From contig LBYF01000006.1 in NCBI GenBank assembly GCA_000996025.1, positions 6,219-42,688 of the forward strand: DNA of 36,470 bases. Direction: 5' to 3'. The notes under the pieces were generated by a model, which did no database searches, was not told the DNA's origin, and was given only the letters and a program-made list of their open reading frames with translations. Every line of letters begins with the position of its first letter. Positions within the stretch are counted from its first letter, which is position 1. Shown here piece by piece: positions 3,588 to 22,012 of this stretch. Position numbers and translations under genes: made by a program. Origin of the DNA: Parcubacteria group bacterium GW2011_GWA2_40_14. GTDB taxonomy: Bacteria; Patescibacteriota; Minisyncoccia; Phycocordibacterales; DATDWN01.

Positions 3588-4289
3588 ATGAGAAAGGAAA
3601 CTATCGTCATTGATTCATTCGTTCATGTTATTAATCGTGGAACAAAACAGATGCCCATATATAGGCAAAAGAGTGATTTGTGGAGGCTTTTATTTAGTTT
3701 ATTTTACGTTAACAATTTTTCGTCAAAAAATTGGGCACGAGAACTTGAAAGAGCAGAAATTGACCCCCAAAGTTTCATTTGGCCGGAAGTTCTTGGGGTA
3801 AGAAAACCAATAGTTTCTATTTTAGGTTTTACATTGATGTCAAATCATTTCCATTTGATTTTAAAGGAAATTATTGAAGGAGGTATTAGCAGTTTTTTAC
3901 ATAAATTTACAATGGGACATTCAAAATTTATCAATGCCAAATACAAAGAAAGTGGAAATTTGTTTCAAGGAAAGTTTCAGTCAAGAACAATTGAAACGGA
4001 CGAATATCTTCGTAGAGTAAGCGTGTATGTGATGGTTAAAAACACTTTTGAGTTATATCCAAAAGGAGGATTAAAAGGAGCCATAAAAGATTTTGAAGAT
4101 GCGTGGAAATGGGCTATTCAATATCCATTTTCAAGTCTCGGTGATTATGCTGGTGTAAGAAATTCACCAATTTTAGATAAGGACTTACTTGGAGAAATTT
4201 TTGATTCCCCAGAGGATTTTAAAGAATTTTCAAAAGACTATATTTTAGGAAGAACTCCAGATGAAGATATGGAAGAATTTGAATTTTAA
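3588..4289 (+). CDS. REP-associated tyrosine transposase (RAYT, Y1/IS200-like superfamily)
   Basis: The 233-residue protein has the HUH metal-binding motif of Y1 transposases in MSNHFHLIL (about residue 85) and a C-terminal DEYLRRVSVYVMVKN helix holding the likely catalytic tyrosine, after NLFQGKF. The N-terminal FVHVINRGTKQMPIY matches the family start. RAYTs are single-copy relatives of IS200/IS605 TnpA that nick and join single-stranded REP hairpins. Here hairpins of the same sequence stand 11 bases before the ATG and 1 base after the stop, and a related hairpin sits inside ruvC (7665-7693). The gene separates murJ from lepA and has no ribosome binding site. It appears intact. Confidence 0.88.
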   Translation: MRKETIVIDSFVHVINRGTKQMPIYRQKSDLWRLLFSLFYVNNFSSKNWARELERAEIDPQSFIWPEVLGVRKPIVSILGFTLMSNHFHLILKEIIEGGISSFLHKFTMGHSKFINAKYKESGNLFQGKFQSRTIETDEYLRRVSVYVMVKNTFELYPKGGLKGAIKDFEDAWKWAIQYPFSSLGDYAGVRNSPILDKDLLGEIFDSPEDFKEFSKDYILGRTPDEDMEEFEF

Positions 4290-4351: not shown

Positions 4352-6196
4352 ATGGTTGTTATGGAGAATATTCGAAACTTTTCAATAATTGCCCACATTG
4401 ACCATGGCAAATCTACCTTGGCTGATAGAATGCTAGAAATCACGGGGACAATAGAAGCGCGAAAGATGCAGGACCAAGTTCTCGATTCTATGGAACTTGA
4501 ACGTGAAAGGGGAATTACTATCAAAATGCAGCCCGTCAGGATGGTACACCATCCTGACGGTCCTGAGCGAAGCGAAGGGCAAGAGTACATTCTCAACTTG
4601 ATTGATACTCCGGGGCATATTGATTTTTCATATGAAGTTTCTCGGGCACTGAAGGCAGTGGAAGGGTCTATATTGCTCGTTGATTCTACCCAAGGTGTAC
4701 AGGCCCAAACATTGACAACTCTGGGCATGGCACGGGAGTCAGGGCTAATTATTATTCCTGTACTTTCAAAAATAGATTCACCACTAGCTCGAGTAAGTGA
4801 AGTTAGGGCTGAAGTAGTTAAACTTCTTGATTGTAATCCAGACGATATTTTAGAAGTTTCTGGAAAAACTGGAGAGGGTGTGGAGAATCTTTTGCTCGAG
4901 GTCATAAAGCGTATTCCACCACCAAAGGTATTGGTGCCGCAGGCGCCCGGCAATGTCGGCACCGGGACGTTCCGCGCGCTAGTGTTTGATTTCAAATATT
5001 CTACCCATCGTGGAGTTATTGTCTTTGTGCGCGTTATGAGCGGTTCTATTTCTAAAAATACTTCCCTTGTTTTTAAGGTTGCAAAAGAAAAATTTACAGC
5101 GATTGAAGTTGGTATTTTTTCTCCTGGTGAAGTGCCAACCGAAACACTATCTCTCGGAGAAATTGGGTACATTGTGACTGGTATAAAGGAACCAGGCATT
5201 GCCTCGGTTGGAGACACCGTGGCAGAGGAGAGAGACACGTTGCCACCACTTACGGGATATGAAAAACCTCATCCTGTTGTCTGGGCTTCCATTTATCCGG
5301 AGAGTCAAGATGATTTTATAACTTTGAAACAATCTCTCGGCAAATTAAAATTGTCTGACTCATCGTATACATATGAGGAAGAATCGTCTGGTTCACTCGG
5401 ACGTGGCTTTCGTTGCGGTTTTCTCGGCATGCTTCATTTGGAAATTATTACAGAGAGACTCCACCGTGAATTCAATTTGGATTTGGTTGTAACAATGCCA
5501 ACCATTACATATGAAGTGTTGTACAAAACGGGTCCGAAGCAAGGGAAGTGGGAGACAATTTATTCTCCATCACATTTTCCCGACGAGGGGTTACTTTCGG
5601 AGATTCGCGAGCCTTGGGTGGAATGCGTTATTATTACACCTTCAAAATATTTGGGAAATATTATGACGCTTTTGTATGAGCACGAAGTGGAGCTTGGCCA
5701 ATCTGAAAATTTTGGTGATGAGCGTACAAGAATGTTTTTGAAAATGCCACTGCGCGAGCTGATGCGAAATTTTTTTGATAAATTGAAAAGCGTTTCAAGT
5801 GGCTTTGCTTCTATTTCCTACGAGATTTTAGGGAAGCGCCCCGCCGATGTTGTGCGTATGGATATTTTGGTAGCCGACGAAGTTTTACCAGCATTTTCTC
5901 GCGTTATTTCACGCAGAATTGTAGAAAGTGAAGCTGAATCTATGGTGGAAAAGCTCCACGCCGTACTGCCGAGACAAATGTTTGTTATGAAAATCCAAGC
6001 CAAAGCGCTGGGGCGGATTATTTCTTCTCGTACTGTTTCAGCATTTAGCAAAGATGTTACCCAGCATATGTATGGTGGAGACATCACTCGCAAAATGAAA
6101 CTTCGTGAAAAGCAAAAGAAAGGCAAGAAAAAAATGAAAGCTCGTGGAAAAGTAAACATCCCCCAGGACGTATTTCTCAAAATGATGCGCTCATAA
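4352..6196 (+). CDS. lepA: Elongation factor 4 (LepA), ribosome back-translocating GTPase
   Basis: The full-length protein (614 residues) has the GTPase motifs AHIDHGKST (G1), DTPGH (G3) and SKID (G4, Ser in place of the usual Asn). The C-terminal LepA domain ends in YGGDITRKMKLREKQKKGKKKMK. EF4 binds stalled or mistranslocated ribosomes and moves tRNAs backwards. The ATG at 4361 gives the canonical MENIRNFSIIAHIDHG start and is the more likely initiation site; 4352 adds three residues. Two segments look inserted relative to E. coli LepA: residues 61-77 (palindrome 4533-4560 plus a GAGCGAAGCGAAGG repeat) and roughly residues 193-207 (GC-rich inverted repeat at 4933-4963). Both keep the frame open. 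Confidence 0.96.
   Translation: MVVMENIRNFSIIAHIDHGKSTLADRMLEITGTIEARKMQDQVLDSMELERERGITIKMQPVRMVHHPDGPERSEGQEYILNLIDTPGHIDFSYEVSRALKAVEGSILLVDSTQGVQAQTLTTLGMARESGLIIIPVLSKIDSPLARVSEVRAEVVKLLDCNPDDILEVSGKTGEGVENLLLEVIKRIPPPKVLVPQAPGNVGTGTFRALVFDFKYSTHRGVIVFVRVMSGSISKNTSLVFKVAKEKFTAIEVGIFSPGEVPTETLSLGEIGYIVTGIKEPGIASVGDTVAEERDTLPPLTGYEKPHPVVWASIYPESQDDFITLKQSLGKLKLSDSSYTYEEESSGSLGRGFRCGFLGMLHLEIITERLHREFNLDLVVTMPTITYEVLYKTGPKQGKWETIYSPSHFPDEGLLSEIREPWVECVIITPSKYLGNIMTLLYEHEVELGQSENFGDERTRMFLKMPLRELMRNFFDKLKSVSSGFASISYEILGKRPADVVRMDILVADEVLPAFSRVISRRIVESEAESMVEKLHAVLPRQMFVMKIQAKALGRIISSRTVSAFSKDVTQHMYGGDITRKMKLREKQKKGKKKMKARGKVNIPQDVFLKMMRS
4533..4580. repeat. Palindrome plus GAGCGAAG-type repeat inside lepA
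   Basis: Arms CCGTCAGGATGGT and ACCATCCTGACGG form a 13-bp stem around two bases, followed directly by CCTGAGCGAAGCGAAGGGC. In the lepA frame this encodes PVRMVHHPDG and PERSEGQ. E. coli LepA has a shorter, unrelated loop between the switch I region and DTPGH. A relative of the second part occurs between genes at 27782-27810. Confidence 0.75.
4933..4963. repeat. GC-rich inverted repeat inside lepA
   Basis: GGTGCCG at 4933-4939 is mirrored by CGGCACC at 4957-4963, in a GC-rich block that stands out from the AT-rich gene. It encodes part of VLVPQAPGNVGTGTF just after the GTPase domain, a place where E. coli LepA has a shorter linker (IPPPEGDPEGPLQAL). Confidence 0.55.
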
Positions 6197-6312
6197 CTCC
6201 AAATCCGGCGCATTTCGTCGTTGCTTCACAATTTTCCCTCCACGCGCAGTAGGTCTACTACAGCTTGGTCGGAAAAATTGCTTGCACCTAGAACTGCATC
6301 CGGATTTGGAGT
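6196..6312. repeat. Inverted-repeat-bounded 117-base element (MITE-like or structured RNA)
   Basis: ACTCCAAATCCGG at 6196-6208 and CCGGATTTGGAGT at 6300-6312 are perfect 13-base inverted repeats; the first overlaps the last base of the lepA stop codon. Inside, CAATTTTCC and GGAAAAATTG can pair, and GTAGG/CCTAC-type pairs lie near the middle, so the whole unit folds as a rod. No ORF is present. It could be a miniature transposable element or an RNA; the sequence does not decide. Confidence 0.5.
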
Positions 6313-6321
6313 CATGAGACA

Positions 6322-6393
6322 TTATCTAGATATTGCAAAGTGGGTCAGGCCGATGGCGATTGCATCAAATTCATTCTCTTTACCATTTTTCAG
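6322..6393 (-). pseudogene. Relic of a second ruvC 3' end
   Basis: On the minus strand this stretch reads LKNGKENEFDAIAIGLTHFAISR and a stop. The intact ruvC at 7254 ends DDEFDAIAIGLTHFAIHRQR and a stop. Over about 42 aligned bases there are five differences, all at third codon positions, so this copy diverged while still under coding selection and is not a fresh local duplication. Nothing upstream of about 6393 resembles ruvC. Confidence 0.75.
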
Positions 6394-6438
6394 TACGTTA
6401 TACTATATATTATGTATCATATTATGTATCGTTTTATA

Positions 6439-6474
6439 TACACCTATAGCATGCTATAGCGTGTTATAGGTGTA
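6439..6474. repeat. Palindrome with GCTATAGC core, downstream of the PaaX/Cas2-like gene
   Basis: A 36-base near-perfect palindrome: outer arms TACACCTATA and TATAGGTGTA, central GCTATAGC. The only mismatches between the arms allow G-U pairs. A sister element with the same arms and core is at 7147-7181 on the other side of the gene. Confidence 0.8.
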
Positions 6475-6488
6475 AATCAAATATGTGT

Positions 6489-7061
6489 TTAATCTGTATT
6501 TAAATTGAAATGCTTTCTAATAGAAGAATCGTTTTCTATTGAATCAACTATCAAATATAGAAGATCTTTGCCAATATGCATGTGAGCTTTGAGTAAGTTT
6601 ACCAAATCTTCGCATGGATATGGATAGACCCACACGCTATCCTGAATCTTTAGAAAACCGATTTCCAAAAGAGTGTGTCGGAGCTTTTCTCTTTGGGACT
6701 TTTTCTTTTCTGGTATGTCAAATATGAGCAAACGCCATTTTTTATCCCACTTTTTAGGTTTATCTAATGCATAATTTATCAATTCCAATGAAGACAATTT
6801 CTCCTCTCCTTTTTCTGTTAATTCAATAAATCCATTTTTGTATCTCAAAAAACTATTTCTCACCATATTATCGCGAGACCTTTTGATAGCTTCTTTTTGT
6901 CTTTTGTTGGATACTAAGCCAATCGATTTCATATATTGCAGGGCATTTGGGGCGAGAAGCGCAACTCCTAACAAGCCAGCGACTTTTACTGTAGACAAAA
7001 TTGCTTTTCGCACATACTCCTTTGATATTTTTTTCTTTAAATTATCTTCTATTTTTCCCAT
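6489..7061 (-). CDS. PaaX-type/Cas2-like winged-helix protein (orphan)
   Basis: The 190-residue protein has an N-terminal part suited to a winged helix (VRNSFLRYKNGFIELTEKGEEKL) and a C-terminal ferredoxin-like part, KKWRLLIFDIPEKKK then LLEIGFLKIQDSVWVYPYP. This pattern is shared by PaaX-type regulators and Cas2-fold proteins. No CRISPR array, cas1 or phenylacetate genes are nearby, so neither a CRISPR nor a PaaX metabolic role is supported. The gene lies between two related palindromes (6439-6474 and 7147-7181) and between a diverged ruvC tail and the real ruvC, which suggests it travels as a unit. DNA binding is a reasonable inference; the function is unknown. Confidence 0.7.
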   Translation of the reverse strand: MGKIEDNLKKKISKEYVRKAILSTVKVAGLLGVALLAPNALQYMKSIGLVSNKRQKEAIKRSRDNMVRNSFLRYKNGFIELTEKGEEKLSSLELINYALDKPKKWDKKWRLLIFDIPEKKKSQREKLRHTLLEIGFLKIQDSVWVYPYPCEDLVNLLKAHMHIGKDLLYLIVDSIENDSSIRKHFNLNTD

Positions 7062-7146
7062 ATATTTATTTTATCACTACCGTTTTACTTGTAGTCATAT
7101 TGGTATATTATGCGCTTCTGTACTTATTCTAATTATACCACTATTA

Positions 7147-7181
7147 TACACCTATCTTTGCTATAGCGTAGTATAGGTGTA
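7147..7181. repeat. Palindrome with GCTATAGC core, upstream of the PaaX/Cas2-like gene
   Basis: A 35-base element with arms TACACCTAT and ATAGGTGTA around CTTT-GCTATAGC-GTAG. Arms and core match the element at 6439-6474; the four-base spacers differ. It sits about 85 bases ahead of the start codon, where it could be an operator or an element end. Confidence 0.75.
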
Positions 7182-7253
7182 TCTTTTAAGAGGATACCAT
7201 TTATTTATAGTCTTTTAATTTATCTAGTTATTTAATTTAATTACTTAATTTAC

Positions 7254-7751
7254 TTATCTTTGTCTATGTATTGCAAAATGGGTCAGGCCGATAGCGATGG
7301 CGTCGAATTCATCATCACTATTTGTTTTGGAGTTCACGACAATTAGTTTTTTGACCATACTTATCATCTGTCTTTTTTCACTTCTTCCGTAGCCAGTTAT
7401 AGCTATTTTCACACTATTTGGTGTGTATTCAAAAATATCCAAACCGAGAGAACTTCCAGCGTACAAAATTACTCCGCGAGCTTCGGCCACAAGCATTGCT
7501 GTTTTTTGATTCCCACTGAAAAAAAGTTTTTCTGTCACAAGTGCTTCAGGTTTGTATTTTTTTATAACCTCTTTTATTTTATTTCCGATCAGAGCCAATC
7601 TCTCATGATGGGGAAGTTTGCTAGATGTTTTAAAACACTCCGAATAAACCAAAACCTCTTTTTCAACTTGCGCACACTGGGTGTGCGCAAGTTTTTCCAA
7701 CACAGCAATACCAAGTCTCTCGTATCCCGGGTCAATTGAAATAATTTTCAT
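7254..7751 (-). CDS. ruvC: Holliday junction endodeoxyribonuclease RuvC
   Basis: RuvC cuts Holliday junctions symmetrically in complex with RuvAB. The 165-residue protein starts MKIISIDPGYERLGIAV, with the first catalytic Asp at position 7. It continues with a central TEKLFFSGN (catalytic Glu) and ends with DDEFDAIAIGLTHFA, which carries the last acidic residues. Residues 20-29 (KLAHTQCAQV) are encoded by a REP-like hairpin (7665-7693) and look like an in-frame insertion in the beta-hairpin after strand 1. The order on the minus strand is ruvB, yebC, ruvC; ruvA is elsewhere (19092). A second, diverged ruvC tail lies downstream at 6322-6393. Confidence 0.92.
   Translation of the reverse strand: MKIISIDPGYERLGIAVLEKLAHTQCAQVEKEVLVYSECFKTSSKLPHHERLALIGNKIKEVIKKYKPEALVTEKLFFSGNQKTAMLVAEARGVILYAGSSLGLDIFEYTPNSVKIAITGYGRSEKRQMISMVKKLIVVNSKTNSDDEFDAIAIGLTHFAIHRQR
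7665..7693. repeat. REP-like hairpin within ruvC
   Basis: A 13-bp stem with arm AACTTGCGCACAC and loop TGG. It matches the RAYT-flanking hairpins (arm AACTTGCTAACAC) except that the TA in the arm is GC, with the matching change in the other arm, so pairing is preserved. It is read in frame as residues 20-29 of RuvC. Confidence 0.85.
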
Positions 7752-7824
7752 ACTAAAAGTATAGTATATTCTGGAACAAGTAGGTATTCTATGTAAGAAT
7801 ACATCATCAATATATGATATATGT

Positions 7825-7852
7825 AATTACCACCAGTATACTGGTGGTAATT
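7825..7852. repeat. Perfect 28-base palindrome between yebC and ruvC
   Basis: Arm AATTACCACCAGTA followed immediately by its complement. The centre CAGTATACTG is shared with the neighbouring palindrome (7848-7877) and with 30121-30148. Confidence 0.85.
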
Positions 7853-7877
7853 TACTACAGTATACTGTAGTAAATTA
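7848..7877. repeat. Perfect 30-base palindrome between yebC and ruvC
   Basis: Arm TAATTTACTACAGTA followed by its complement; it overlaps the previous palindrome by five bases. The pair fills the gap between the yebC stop and the ruvC start and could act as tandem hairpins in the yebC-ruvC transcript. Confidence 0.85.
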
Positions 7878-21966: not shown

Positions 21967-22012
21967 CCACATACGTTACAATCATGCTATAGCATGATTG
22001 TAACGTATGTGG
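21967..22012. repeat. Perfect 46-base palindrome upstream of ruvX
   Basis: A 23-base arm beginning CCACATACGTTACAATCATG is followed directly by its exact complement; the centre is TGCTATAGCA. The GCTATAGC core is the same as in the two palindromes around the PaaX/Cas2-like gene. It ends 31 bases before the ruvX ATG, in the divergent space with the DUF5652-like gene. Confidence 0.93.

What the first reader, a model, noticed from the sequence alone, without database searches (positions are those of the whole stretch)
6322..7320. PaaX/Cas2-like gene between palindromes and between two ruvC tails: candidate mobile unit
From left to right: a diverged ruvC 3' end, a GCTATAGC palindrome, an orphan winged-helix/Cas2-fold gene, a sister palindrome, then the real ruvC 3' end. 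A direct repeat of a host gene's 3' end around a single gene is the footprint of site-specific integration that rebuilds the target, as integrases do at tRNA genes. No known integrase is present, so the Cas2-like protein with its palindromes could itself be the mobile part. This is the best candidate here for an undescribed system.
Basis: partly seen in the sequence, partly recalled or inferred. Interest (0 to 1): 0.72.

Follow-up and report, generated by a model that had tools for sequence, protein, structure and literature searches.

The report
Palindrome-bounded Cas2-like element in Patescibacteria
A small gene that looks like a DNA-binding protein fused to a CRISPR Cas2 fold sits between two near-perfect DNA palindromes; the same gene-plus-palindromes unit recurs across the ultra-small Patescibacteria, and matching palindromes without the gene are scattered through this genome, so it looks like an undescribed selfish or repeat-spreading element.

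Summary
A PaaX_M/Cas2-like gene (window 6489-7061, minus) lies between two 35-36-nt palindromes with identical arms, and between a 53-nt, 85% copy of the ruvC 3' end and the real ruvC 3' end. The important part is the gene plus palindromes, not the ruvC tail. The genome holds seven homologues. Among homologues from other Patescibacteria, 67 of 74 have a matched pair of 14-8-14 palindromes against 4 of 410 control ORFs; a second set, reaching other classes of the phylum, gave 26 of 28. Seventeen gene-less 36-nt palindromes are dispersed in this genome, one at window 21972-22007; their outer arms match resident elements. Their interiors vary but stay symmetric (31-33 of 33 paired, 12-19 expected). 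Ten same-genus genomes have the lepA-ruvC interval without the gene. The layout is that of REP/RAYT or IS200 elements, but the protein has no HUH/Y1 domain; it keeps the Cas2 catalytic Asp. The ruvC tail copy differs mostly at synonymous sites, as between species, and only 4 of 78 elements have such flanking repeats, so it is better read as a recombination scar than as an integration footprint. Active mobility and the chemistry are inferred, not shown.

The parts
6439..7181 (-). whole unit: palindrome - PaaX/Cas2-like gene - palindrome (743 nt)
   Evidence: recurs with the same architecture in 67/74 and 26/28 homologues
6489..7061 (-). PaaX_M/Cas2-like gene, 190 aa: winged helix (about residues 30-95) plus ferredoxin/Cas2-like domain (about 105-175), Asp115 in IFDIPE
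6439..6474 (.). downstream (D) palindrome TACACCTATAGCATGCTATAGCGTGTTATAGGTGTA
7147..7181 (.). upstream (U) palindrome TACACCTATCTTTGCTATAGCGTAGTATAGGTGTA
21972..22007 (.). solo perfect palindrome TACGTTACAATCATGCTATAGCATGATTGTAACGTA, no gene beside it; arms of the type of the element at G000:C8
   Evidence: G000:C6:28190-28225; L197
6322..6374 (-). truncated, diverged copy of the ruvC 3' end; recombination scar next to the unit, not part of its recurring anatomy
7254..7751 (-). intact ruvC (repeat segment 7260-7312); ends ...IHRQR* where the left copy keeps a stop after the R

Best explanation
The gene and its two palindromes form one compact element of about 0.65-0.75 kb, a member of a large and so far undescribed family in Patescibacteria. 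The element and, above all, its palindromes spread within and between genomes. Proposed mechanism: the protein acts as a dimer. Its winged-helix domain reads the outer arms of a palindrome (inferred from co-variation of arm and domain). Its Cas2-fold domain, with the Cas2 catalytic Asp intact, cuts or resolves the palindrome or the hairpin it forms, near the conserved CTATAG-type centre (inferred). Repair that copies one arm from the other would keep the palindromes perfectly symmetric while their interior changes, and exchange at the centre would shuffle half-sites between the two ends of an element (inferred). Gene-less palindromes are the non-autonomous form, as REPs are to RAYT genes. The element reached the lepA-ruvC interval after the lineage split from its sampled relatives, probably on a DNA segment taken up from a related species and joined in the ruvC tail, which left the 53-nt duplicate.
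For: Shown: paired 14-8-14 palindromes at 67/74 homologues vs 4/410 control ORFs and at 26/28 in a second, partly overlapping set that reaches other classes of the phylum. Seven copies in 637 kb, each with its own palindromes. Gene in 121/297 genomes of the order and 94/286 of the phylum, up to 11 copies, patchy within the genus. Solo palindromes: 17 in G000, 8 in G005, none in the six genus members without the gene; at order level 10 of 13 palindrome-bearing genomes carry the gene, p=0.008. Solo arms match resident elements. Interior positions 4-14 of 33 solos pair 31-33/33 vs 12-19 expected. Six dispersed copies of a roughly 88-nt unit with one of these palindromes inside. Outer arm co-varies with the winged-helix domain (r=0.42, permutation maximum 0.25), less with the Cas2 domain (0.24), inner arm hardly. 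Half-site pairing departs from chance (mean gap 2.84 vs 1.57, sd 0.16), with self, direct and inverted pairings all seen. Unoccupied intervals: lepA-ruvC 10/10 relatives, rsmA-uvrD and rpsR-efp, rpsG-fusA 31 nt in L062 vs about 1.2 kb in L085. Asp115 invariant in 48/48, not Asp in PaaX or Rv0674.
Against: No movement was observed. No near-identical copy pair at two sites was found: in-genome copies are at most 69% identical in protein and the nearest relative usually lies in another genome, so the genes themselves move rarely or anciently. Some sites are shared between species (rsmA-uvrD in G000, G003, G005), as with slow vertical inheritance plus loss. Exact junctions could not be read because intergenic DNA turns over too fast at this distance. 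Solos matching the pattern were found in only about a dozen of 297 genomes, though only one core sequence was searched. Two genomes (G025, G039) have palindromes without a detected gene. The structure model is moderate (pLDDT 76, pTM 0.52) and its best fold match is the repressor PaaX.
Confidence: 0.6

Rival explanations
1. A PaaX-type repressor that regulates itself and a small regulon: the palindromes are operators, and the solos are operators at other promoters.
For: PaaX is the nearest fold and family; in 29 of 63 elements the upstream palindrome ends exactly at the start codon; arms co-vary with the winged helix.
Against: A second palindrome also lies downstream of the gene. Solos lie between convergent genes (6) more often than divergent ones (3) of 33 and are not promoter-specific. 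The variable interior is perfectly symmetric, which operators do not need. A palindrome-bearing repeat is dispersed in six copies. Distribution is patchy and multi-copy.
Confidence: 0.22
2. The palindromes are REP-like repeats moved by the Y1 (RAYT-type) transposases of these genomes, one of which lies at window 3588-4289; the Cas2-like gene is a passenger that sits between two of them.
For: G000 and G005, richest in solos, have 3 and at least 6 Y1 genes.
Against: Y1 presence does not track the palindromes: G003 has the element and no Y1; G004, G009 and G010 have Y1 but no such palindrome. Arms co-vary with the Cas2-like protein. The gene is bracketed by palindromes in 90% of cases across the phylum.
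Confidence: 0.07
3. One reading: site-specific integration into the 3' end of ruvC that rebuilds the gene, as integrases do at tRNA genes.
For: The ruvC 3' end is repeated on the far side of the unit; L064 has the unit beside a tRNA-Leu gene with a decayed partial copy on the other side.
Against: Flanking repeats in only 4/78 elements and with unrelated targets; copies diverged as between species, mostly synonymous; L085 has a duplicated rpsG tail on one side of the unit only; no integrase in the unit.
Confidence: 0.05
4. An ordinary vertically inherited gene with hairpin-type terminators on both sides; nothing mobile.
For: Some sites are shared by several species.
Against: Palindromes are not followed by T-runs and lie directly upstream of the start codon; U and D match each other; up to 11 copies per genome at different sites; many unoccupied sites in relatives; solos.
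Confidence: 0.06

Closest known systems
REP/RAYT system (repetitive extragenic palindromes and REP-associated tyrosine transposases; PMC2817692)
   Same: One gene always flanked by two palindromes; many gene-less palindromes of matching type in the genome; intergenic; several gene types per genome, each with its own palindrome; complementary changes in the arms.
   Different: The protein is PaaX/Cas2-like, without a Y1/HUH domain. Palindromes are symmetric, 36 nt, AT-rich, with a CTATAG-type centre and no GT(A/G)G head.
IS200/IS605-type insertion sequences
   Same: Single-gene element of about 0.7 kb with a hairpin at each end.
   Different: No Y1 transposase; the palindromes at the two ends are alike and also occur alone.
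PaaX family repressors (TIGR02277; structure 8a39)
   Same: Winged helix followed by a Cas2-like domain; nearest fold (TM 0.54 on the query).
   Different: 190 aa against about 300; 37 bits against a cut-off of 264.55; Asp115 replaced in PaaX; no paa genes nearby; bounded by palindromes.
Cas2 (TIGR01573)
   Same: DIP...GxxRxQxSVW-type motif including the catalytic Asp; 26.8 bits, just above the cut-off of 24.5.
   Different: Extra N-terminal winged helix; encoded between palindromes rather than beside cas1 or a CRISPR array in this window.
IS1272, which inserts into inverted repeats and replaces them (PMC5678879)
   Same: Inverted-repeat structures are the relevant sites and no short target duplication is made.
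   Different: Canonical transposase gene; IS1272 targets inverted repeats of unrelated sequence, whereas here the arms belong to the element's own family.

Membership tests
REP/RAYT | Y1/HUH tyrosine transposase encoded by the flanked gene | tested here: not met
   Pfam: PaaX_M and weak Cas2 only, no Y1_Tnp; the A2 invariant columns contain no HUH motif
REP/RAYT | gene flanked on both sides by palindromes of one type | tested here: met
   67/74 vs 4/410 controls; 26/28
REP/RAYT | solo palindromes of matching type elsewhere in the genome | tested here: met
   17 in G000, 8 in G005, arms as in resident elements
REP/RAYT | GT(A/G)G head at one side of an asymmetric palindrome | tested here: not met
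   36-nt symmetric palindromes, TAC...GTA
IS200/IS605 | TnpA of the Y1 family | tested here: not met
integrase-type element at a gene 3' end | integrase or recombinase gene inside the unit | tested here: not met
   the only gene of the unit is the PaaX/Cas2-like one
integrase-type element at a gene 3' end | near-identical duplicate of the target gene end around the unit | tested here: not met
   4/78 elements with any large flanking repeat, 74-87% identical
PaaX repressor | full-length PaaX (TIGR02277 above cut-off) | tested here: not met
   37 bits vs 264.55
PaaX repressor | PaaX_M Cas2-like middle domain | tested here: met
   E=1.4e-21, 76.8 bits vs cut-off 24
PaaX repressor | controls promoters through operator sites | not testable with these tools
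   needs binding and expression data
Cas2 | Cas2 domain with catalytic Asp | tested here: met
   TIGR01573 26.8 vs 24.5 bits for the window protein; Asp115 invariant in 48/48
Cas2 | encoded with cas1 and a CRISPR array | not tested
   neighbours in the window are lepA, ruvC, yebC and ruvB; cas1 was not searched genome-wide
mobile element | occupied and unoccupied versions of the same site | tested here: met
   lepA-ruvC, rsmA-uvrD, rpsR-efp, rpsG-fusA; exact junctions not resolved
mobile element | recent near-identical copies at different sites | tested here: not met
   for the gene: at most 69% protein identity within a genome; identical 36-nt solos at several sites do exist

The most novel reading that the evidence does not exclude
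A new class of mobile DNA in which a winged-helix/Cas2-fold protein is the only enzyme: it cuts and exchanges strands at the centre of its own palindromes, so elements carry hybrid half-site palindromes ([ab'] gene [ba'] or [ab'] gene [ab']) and solo palindromes ([aa'], [bb']) are its empty or copied sites. It would be a Cas2 relative working as a recombinase without Cas1.
Probability: 0.38. Interest if true: 0.92.

Novelty: categorically new. Interest (0 to 1): 0.74.

Why it matters
If right, about 40% of sampled genomes in this order and a third of those sampled across Patescibacteria carry an unrecognised repeat-spreading element built on a Cas2-like protein, annotated until now as a PaaX-like regulator or an orphan Cas2. 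It would give a second, non-homologous origin for REP/RAYT-like genome biology, a clue to what Cas2-fold proteins did outside CRISPR, and a ready test of how perfect palindromes are kept symmetric while their sequence changes. Even under the repressor rival, a phylum-wide family of regulators bounded by self-matching palindromes would be new.

Tried and rejected
Integration footprint at ruvC: flanking-repeat scan of 78 elements gave only 4 cases with unrelated targets. Vehicle search: no homologue in IMG/VR viral contigs, INPHARED phages or PLSDB plasmids; PHROGs gave nothing above chance. Known RNA: the Rfam matches in the window are tRNAs only. Y1 transposase as mover: presence does not track palindromes. 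Exact junctions from occupied versus unoccupied sites: intergenic DNA of same-genus species is too different to align. Per-element tests of half-site pairing are mostly not significant on their own (6 of 63 at p<=0.05); only the aggregate is. Mirror-copying of the gene start into the outer flank, suggested by L163, was tested on 29 elements and is not general (mean symmetric extension 1.24 vs 0.34 in controls; flanks match the starts of other elements as well). Direct sequence match to a solved structure: none with the single sequence. Papers: searches for PaaX, Cas2, Patescibacteria/Parcubacteria and palindromic mobile elements found no description; the library is incomplete, so earlier description elsewhere cannot be excluded.

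Full report
What is there. The window belongs to a Patescibacteria genome (G000, 637 kb in 26 contigs; its same-genus relatives include genomes labelled Candidatus Zambryskibacteria). Between lepA (ends 6196) and ruvC (7254-7751, minus) lie, from left to right: a 19-nt inverted repeat 6190-6318 with 91 nt between its arms; a 53-nt, 85% copy of the ruvC 3' end (6322-6374); a palindrome (6439-6474); a 190-aa gene (6489-7061, minus); a second palindrome (7147-7181); and the true ruvC end. The gene matches Pfam PaaX_M (1.4e-21) and NCBIfam cas2 (26.8 bits, cut-off 24.5), but not full-length PaaX (37 vs 264.55 bits).

The unit recurs. The genome has seven homologues, 28-60% identical to this one, each between its own pair of palindromes roughly 530-710 bp apart. 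A scan of GTDB genomes returned at least 556 relatives; the 80 kept carry Parcubacteria-type names or unnamed-bacterium titles. The gene is in 121 of 297 sampled genomes of the order and 94 of 286 across the phylum, with up to 11 copies, and patchily inside the genus (7, 6, 2, 2, 1, 1 and six genomes with none). I scored paired upstream and downstream palindromes in a fixed 36-nt frame: 67 of 74 homologues exceed the 99th percentile of 410 control ORFs from the same contigs, 36 exceed the control maximum, and 29 of 63 have the upstream palindrome ending exactly at the start codon. A second, partly overlapping set of 28 homologues, including four from outside the class, gave 26.

Anatomy of the palindromes. 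The layout is 14-8-14: a conserved outer arm (TACRTTA, TACACCTA and similar), a variable inner arm, and a centre C-NNNN-G (mostly CTATAG, also CGGTCG, CGATCG, CACATG) that is usually the same, or its reverse complement, at the two ends of one element. Outer-arm distance correlates with distance of the winged-helix domain (r=0.42; maximum of 500 permutations 0.25), less with the Cas2 domain (0.24), and inner arms hardly at all. Shared ancestry contributes to such a correlation, so it is support, not proof, for the winged helix reading the outer arm.

Solo palindromes. The pattern TACNY-N9-GCTATAGC-N9-RNGTA finds 22 places in G000 (17 without a gene, one of them at window 21972-22007), 11 in G005, 3 in G008 and 2 in G003. 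It finds none in the six genus members without the gene, and none in G002 and G007, which have the gene; the reversed pattern finds none. At order level 13 of 297 genomes match a slightly looser pattern and 10 of them have the gene (hypergeometric p=0.008). Arms of solos match resident elements: TACACCTAT with the window element, TACGTTA with G000:C8, TACACTTA with G000:C4, TACATTAT with G005:C15. Of 33 solos read in context 29 are perfect over the whole 36 nt, 32 are intergenic, and they lie between convergent, tandem and divergent genes alike. The interior differs between solos yet stays symmetric: positions 4-14 are paired in 31-33 of 33 solos where column composition predicts 12-19; symmetry extends a few bases outward. 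Identical 36-mers occur at different places with different flanks (L216, L217). Six G000 solos lie inside a longer dispersed repeat of about 88 nt. This is dispersal of palindromes plus either selection for a hairpin or arm-templated repair.

Half-sites. Writing each palindrome as two halves shows three arrangements: each end self-symmetric with the ends different (for example L098, L095, L106), ends as direct copies (L080, L124, L119, G005:C15) and ends as reverse complements (L057, L122, L123). In L057 the ends are exactly [ab'] and [ba'] and a solo in the same genome is [bb']; in G005 the ends are both [ab'] and a solo is [bb']. Over 63 elements the preference for one pairing over the others exceeds column-wise permutation strongly (2.84 vs 1.57, sd 0.16), but only 6 elements are significant alone. 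Exchange at the palindrome centre explains all three arrangements; this is inference.

Occupied and unoccupied sites. All ten same-genus genomes in which the lepA-ruvC interval could be looked for lack the gene beside ruvC (nine read in full); in G005 the two genes are a few bases apart. The rsmA-uvrD site is occupied in G000, G003 and G005 and unoccupied in G001, G002, G004, G006, G010 and G011; rpsR-efp is occupied in G000 and G008 and lacks the gene in G002, G003, G004, G005, G006, G010 and G011. Elsewhere, rpsG-fusA is 31 nt in L062 and about 1.2 kb with an element in L085. Intergenic DNA changes too fast to read exact junctions. Gene copies within a genome are old: at most 69% identical, and 17 of 19 have their nearest relative in another genome. 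So the genes move rarely; the palindromes are the lively part.

The ruvC tail. The two copies differ at 7 of 50 positions, within the 2-13 differences seen to other species of the genus; five of six changed codons are synonymous (and reading of the sequence). The left copy therefore evolved as coding sequence for a time. Similar oddities stand beside a few other elements: tRNA-Leu and a decayed copy (L064), a Nudix gene and a remnant (L075), a duplicated leader (L109), and a one-sided rpsG tail (L085), but large flanking repeats are seen in only 4 of 78 elements. I read them as scars of DNA uptake and illegitimate joining in intergenic regions, not as the element's own integration signature.

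Protein. 48 aligned homologues share 18 invariant residues, among them W105, D106, R110, D115, S142, W144, P147 and Y148. D115 in IFDIPE corresponds to the catalytic Asp of Cas2 (family knowledge); at that place PaaX (8a39) has E and Rv0674 has T. AlphaFold2 gives a winged helix plus a ferredoxin fold (pLDDT 76); the best PDB match is PaaX (E 5e-4), with Cas2 chains next for the second domain. No HUH motif is conserved.

Comparison. RAYT genes are always flanked by two inverted REPs, with solo REPs elsewhere and complementary arm changes (PMC2817692). The system here works like that, but fails the defining test of a Y1/HUH transposase and of the asymmetric GT(A/G)G-headed REP, so it is not filed as REP/RAYT. 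IS1272 shows that an element can use inverted repeats as targets without short target duplications (PMC5678879). I found no description of a Cas2/PaaX-type palindrome-bounded element in the papers searched.

Verdict. Architecture, recurrence, dispersal of cognate palindromes and presence/absence are shown. Active mobility by this protein, its cleavage chemistry and centre exchange are inferred. The main rival is a self-regulating repressor with operators; symmetric but variable interiors, a palindrome on both sides, solos between convergent genes and dispersed repeat copies argue against it without excluding it. The label 'categorically new' is conditional on the mobile reading; under the repressor rival it would be a new variant of a known kind.

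Noticed in passing
window 7824-7877: Two overlapping perfect palindromes between ruvC and yebC, AATTACCACCAGTATACTGGTGGTAATT and TAATTTACTACAGTATACTGTAGTAAATTA, with centre GTATAC instead of CTATAG; possibly another palindrome family.
   Followed up: no
window 6190-6318; L003 left flank; L132: Fold-back sequence of about 115-125 nt next to lepA. A similar-looking segment of the L003 left flank (query 1381-1496) matches many places in genomes with and without the Cas2-like gene; probably a separate dispersed repeat family of the genus.
   Followed up: partly
window 3588-4289: RAYT-like Y1 transposase gene between murJ and lepA; three Y1 genes in this genome and several in relatives.
   Followed up: partly
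L085:4770-4860: The rpsG 3' end (ANKAFAHFAW*) is duplicated on one side of an element, with a short inverted-repeat sequence between the copies.
   Followed up: partly
L064:1000-2240: Solo palindrome - tRNA-Leu - element - decayed tRNA-Leu copy; the solo and the downstream palindrome share their outside flank but differ by a compensatory T-A to C-G change in the arms.
   Followed up: partly
L202, L280-L289 (dnaK-dnaJ interval): The dnaK-dnaJ interval holds different small ORFs or palindromes in nearly every species of the genus, an intergenic turnover hot spot; G000 and G005 have different solo palindromes there and G007 a third type with centre GCACGTGC.
   Followed up: partly
L109:1068-1160 and 2335-2432: Two small genes on either side of an element share a leader of about 95 nt at 86% identity, perhaps a conserved regulatory leader.
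   Followed up: no
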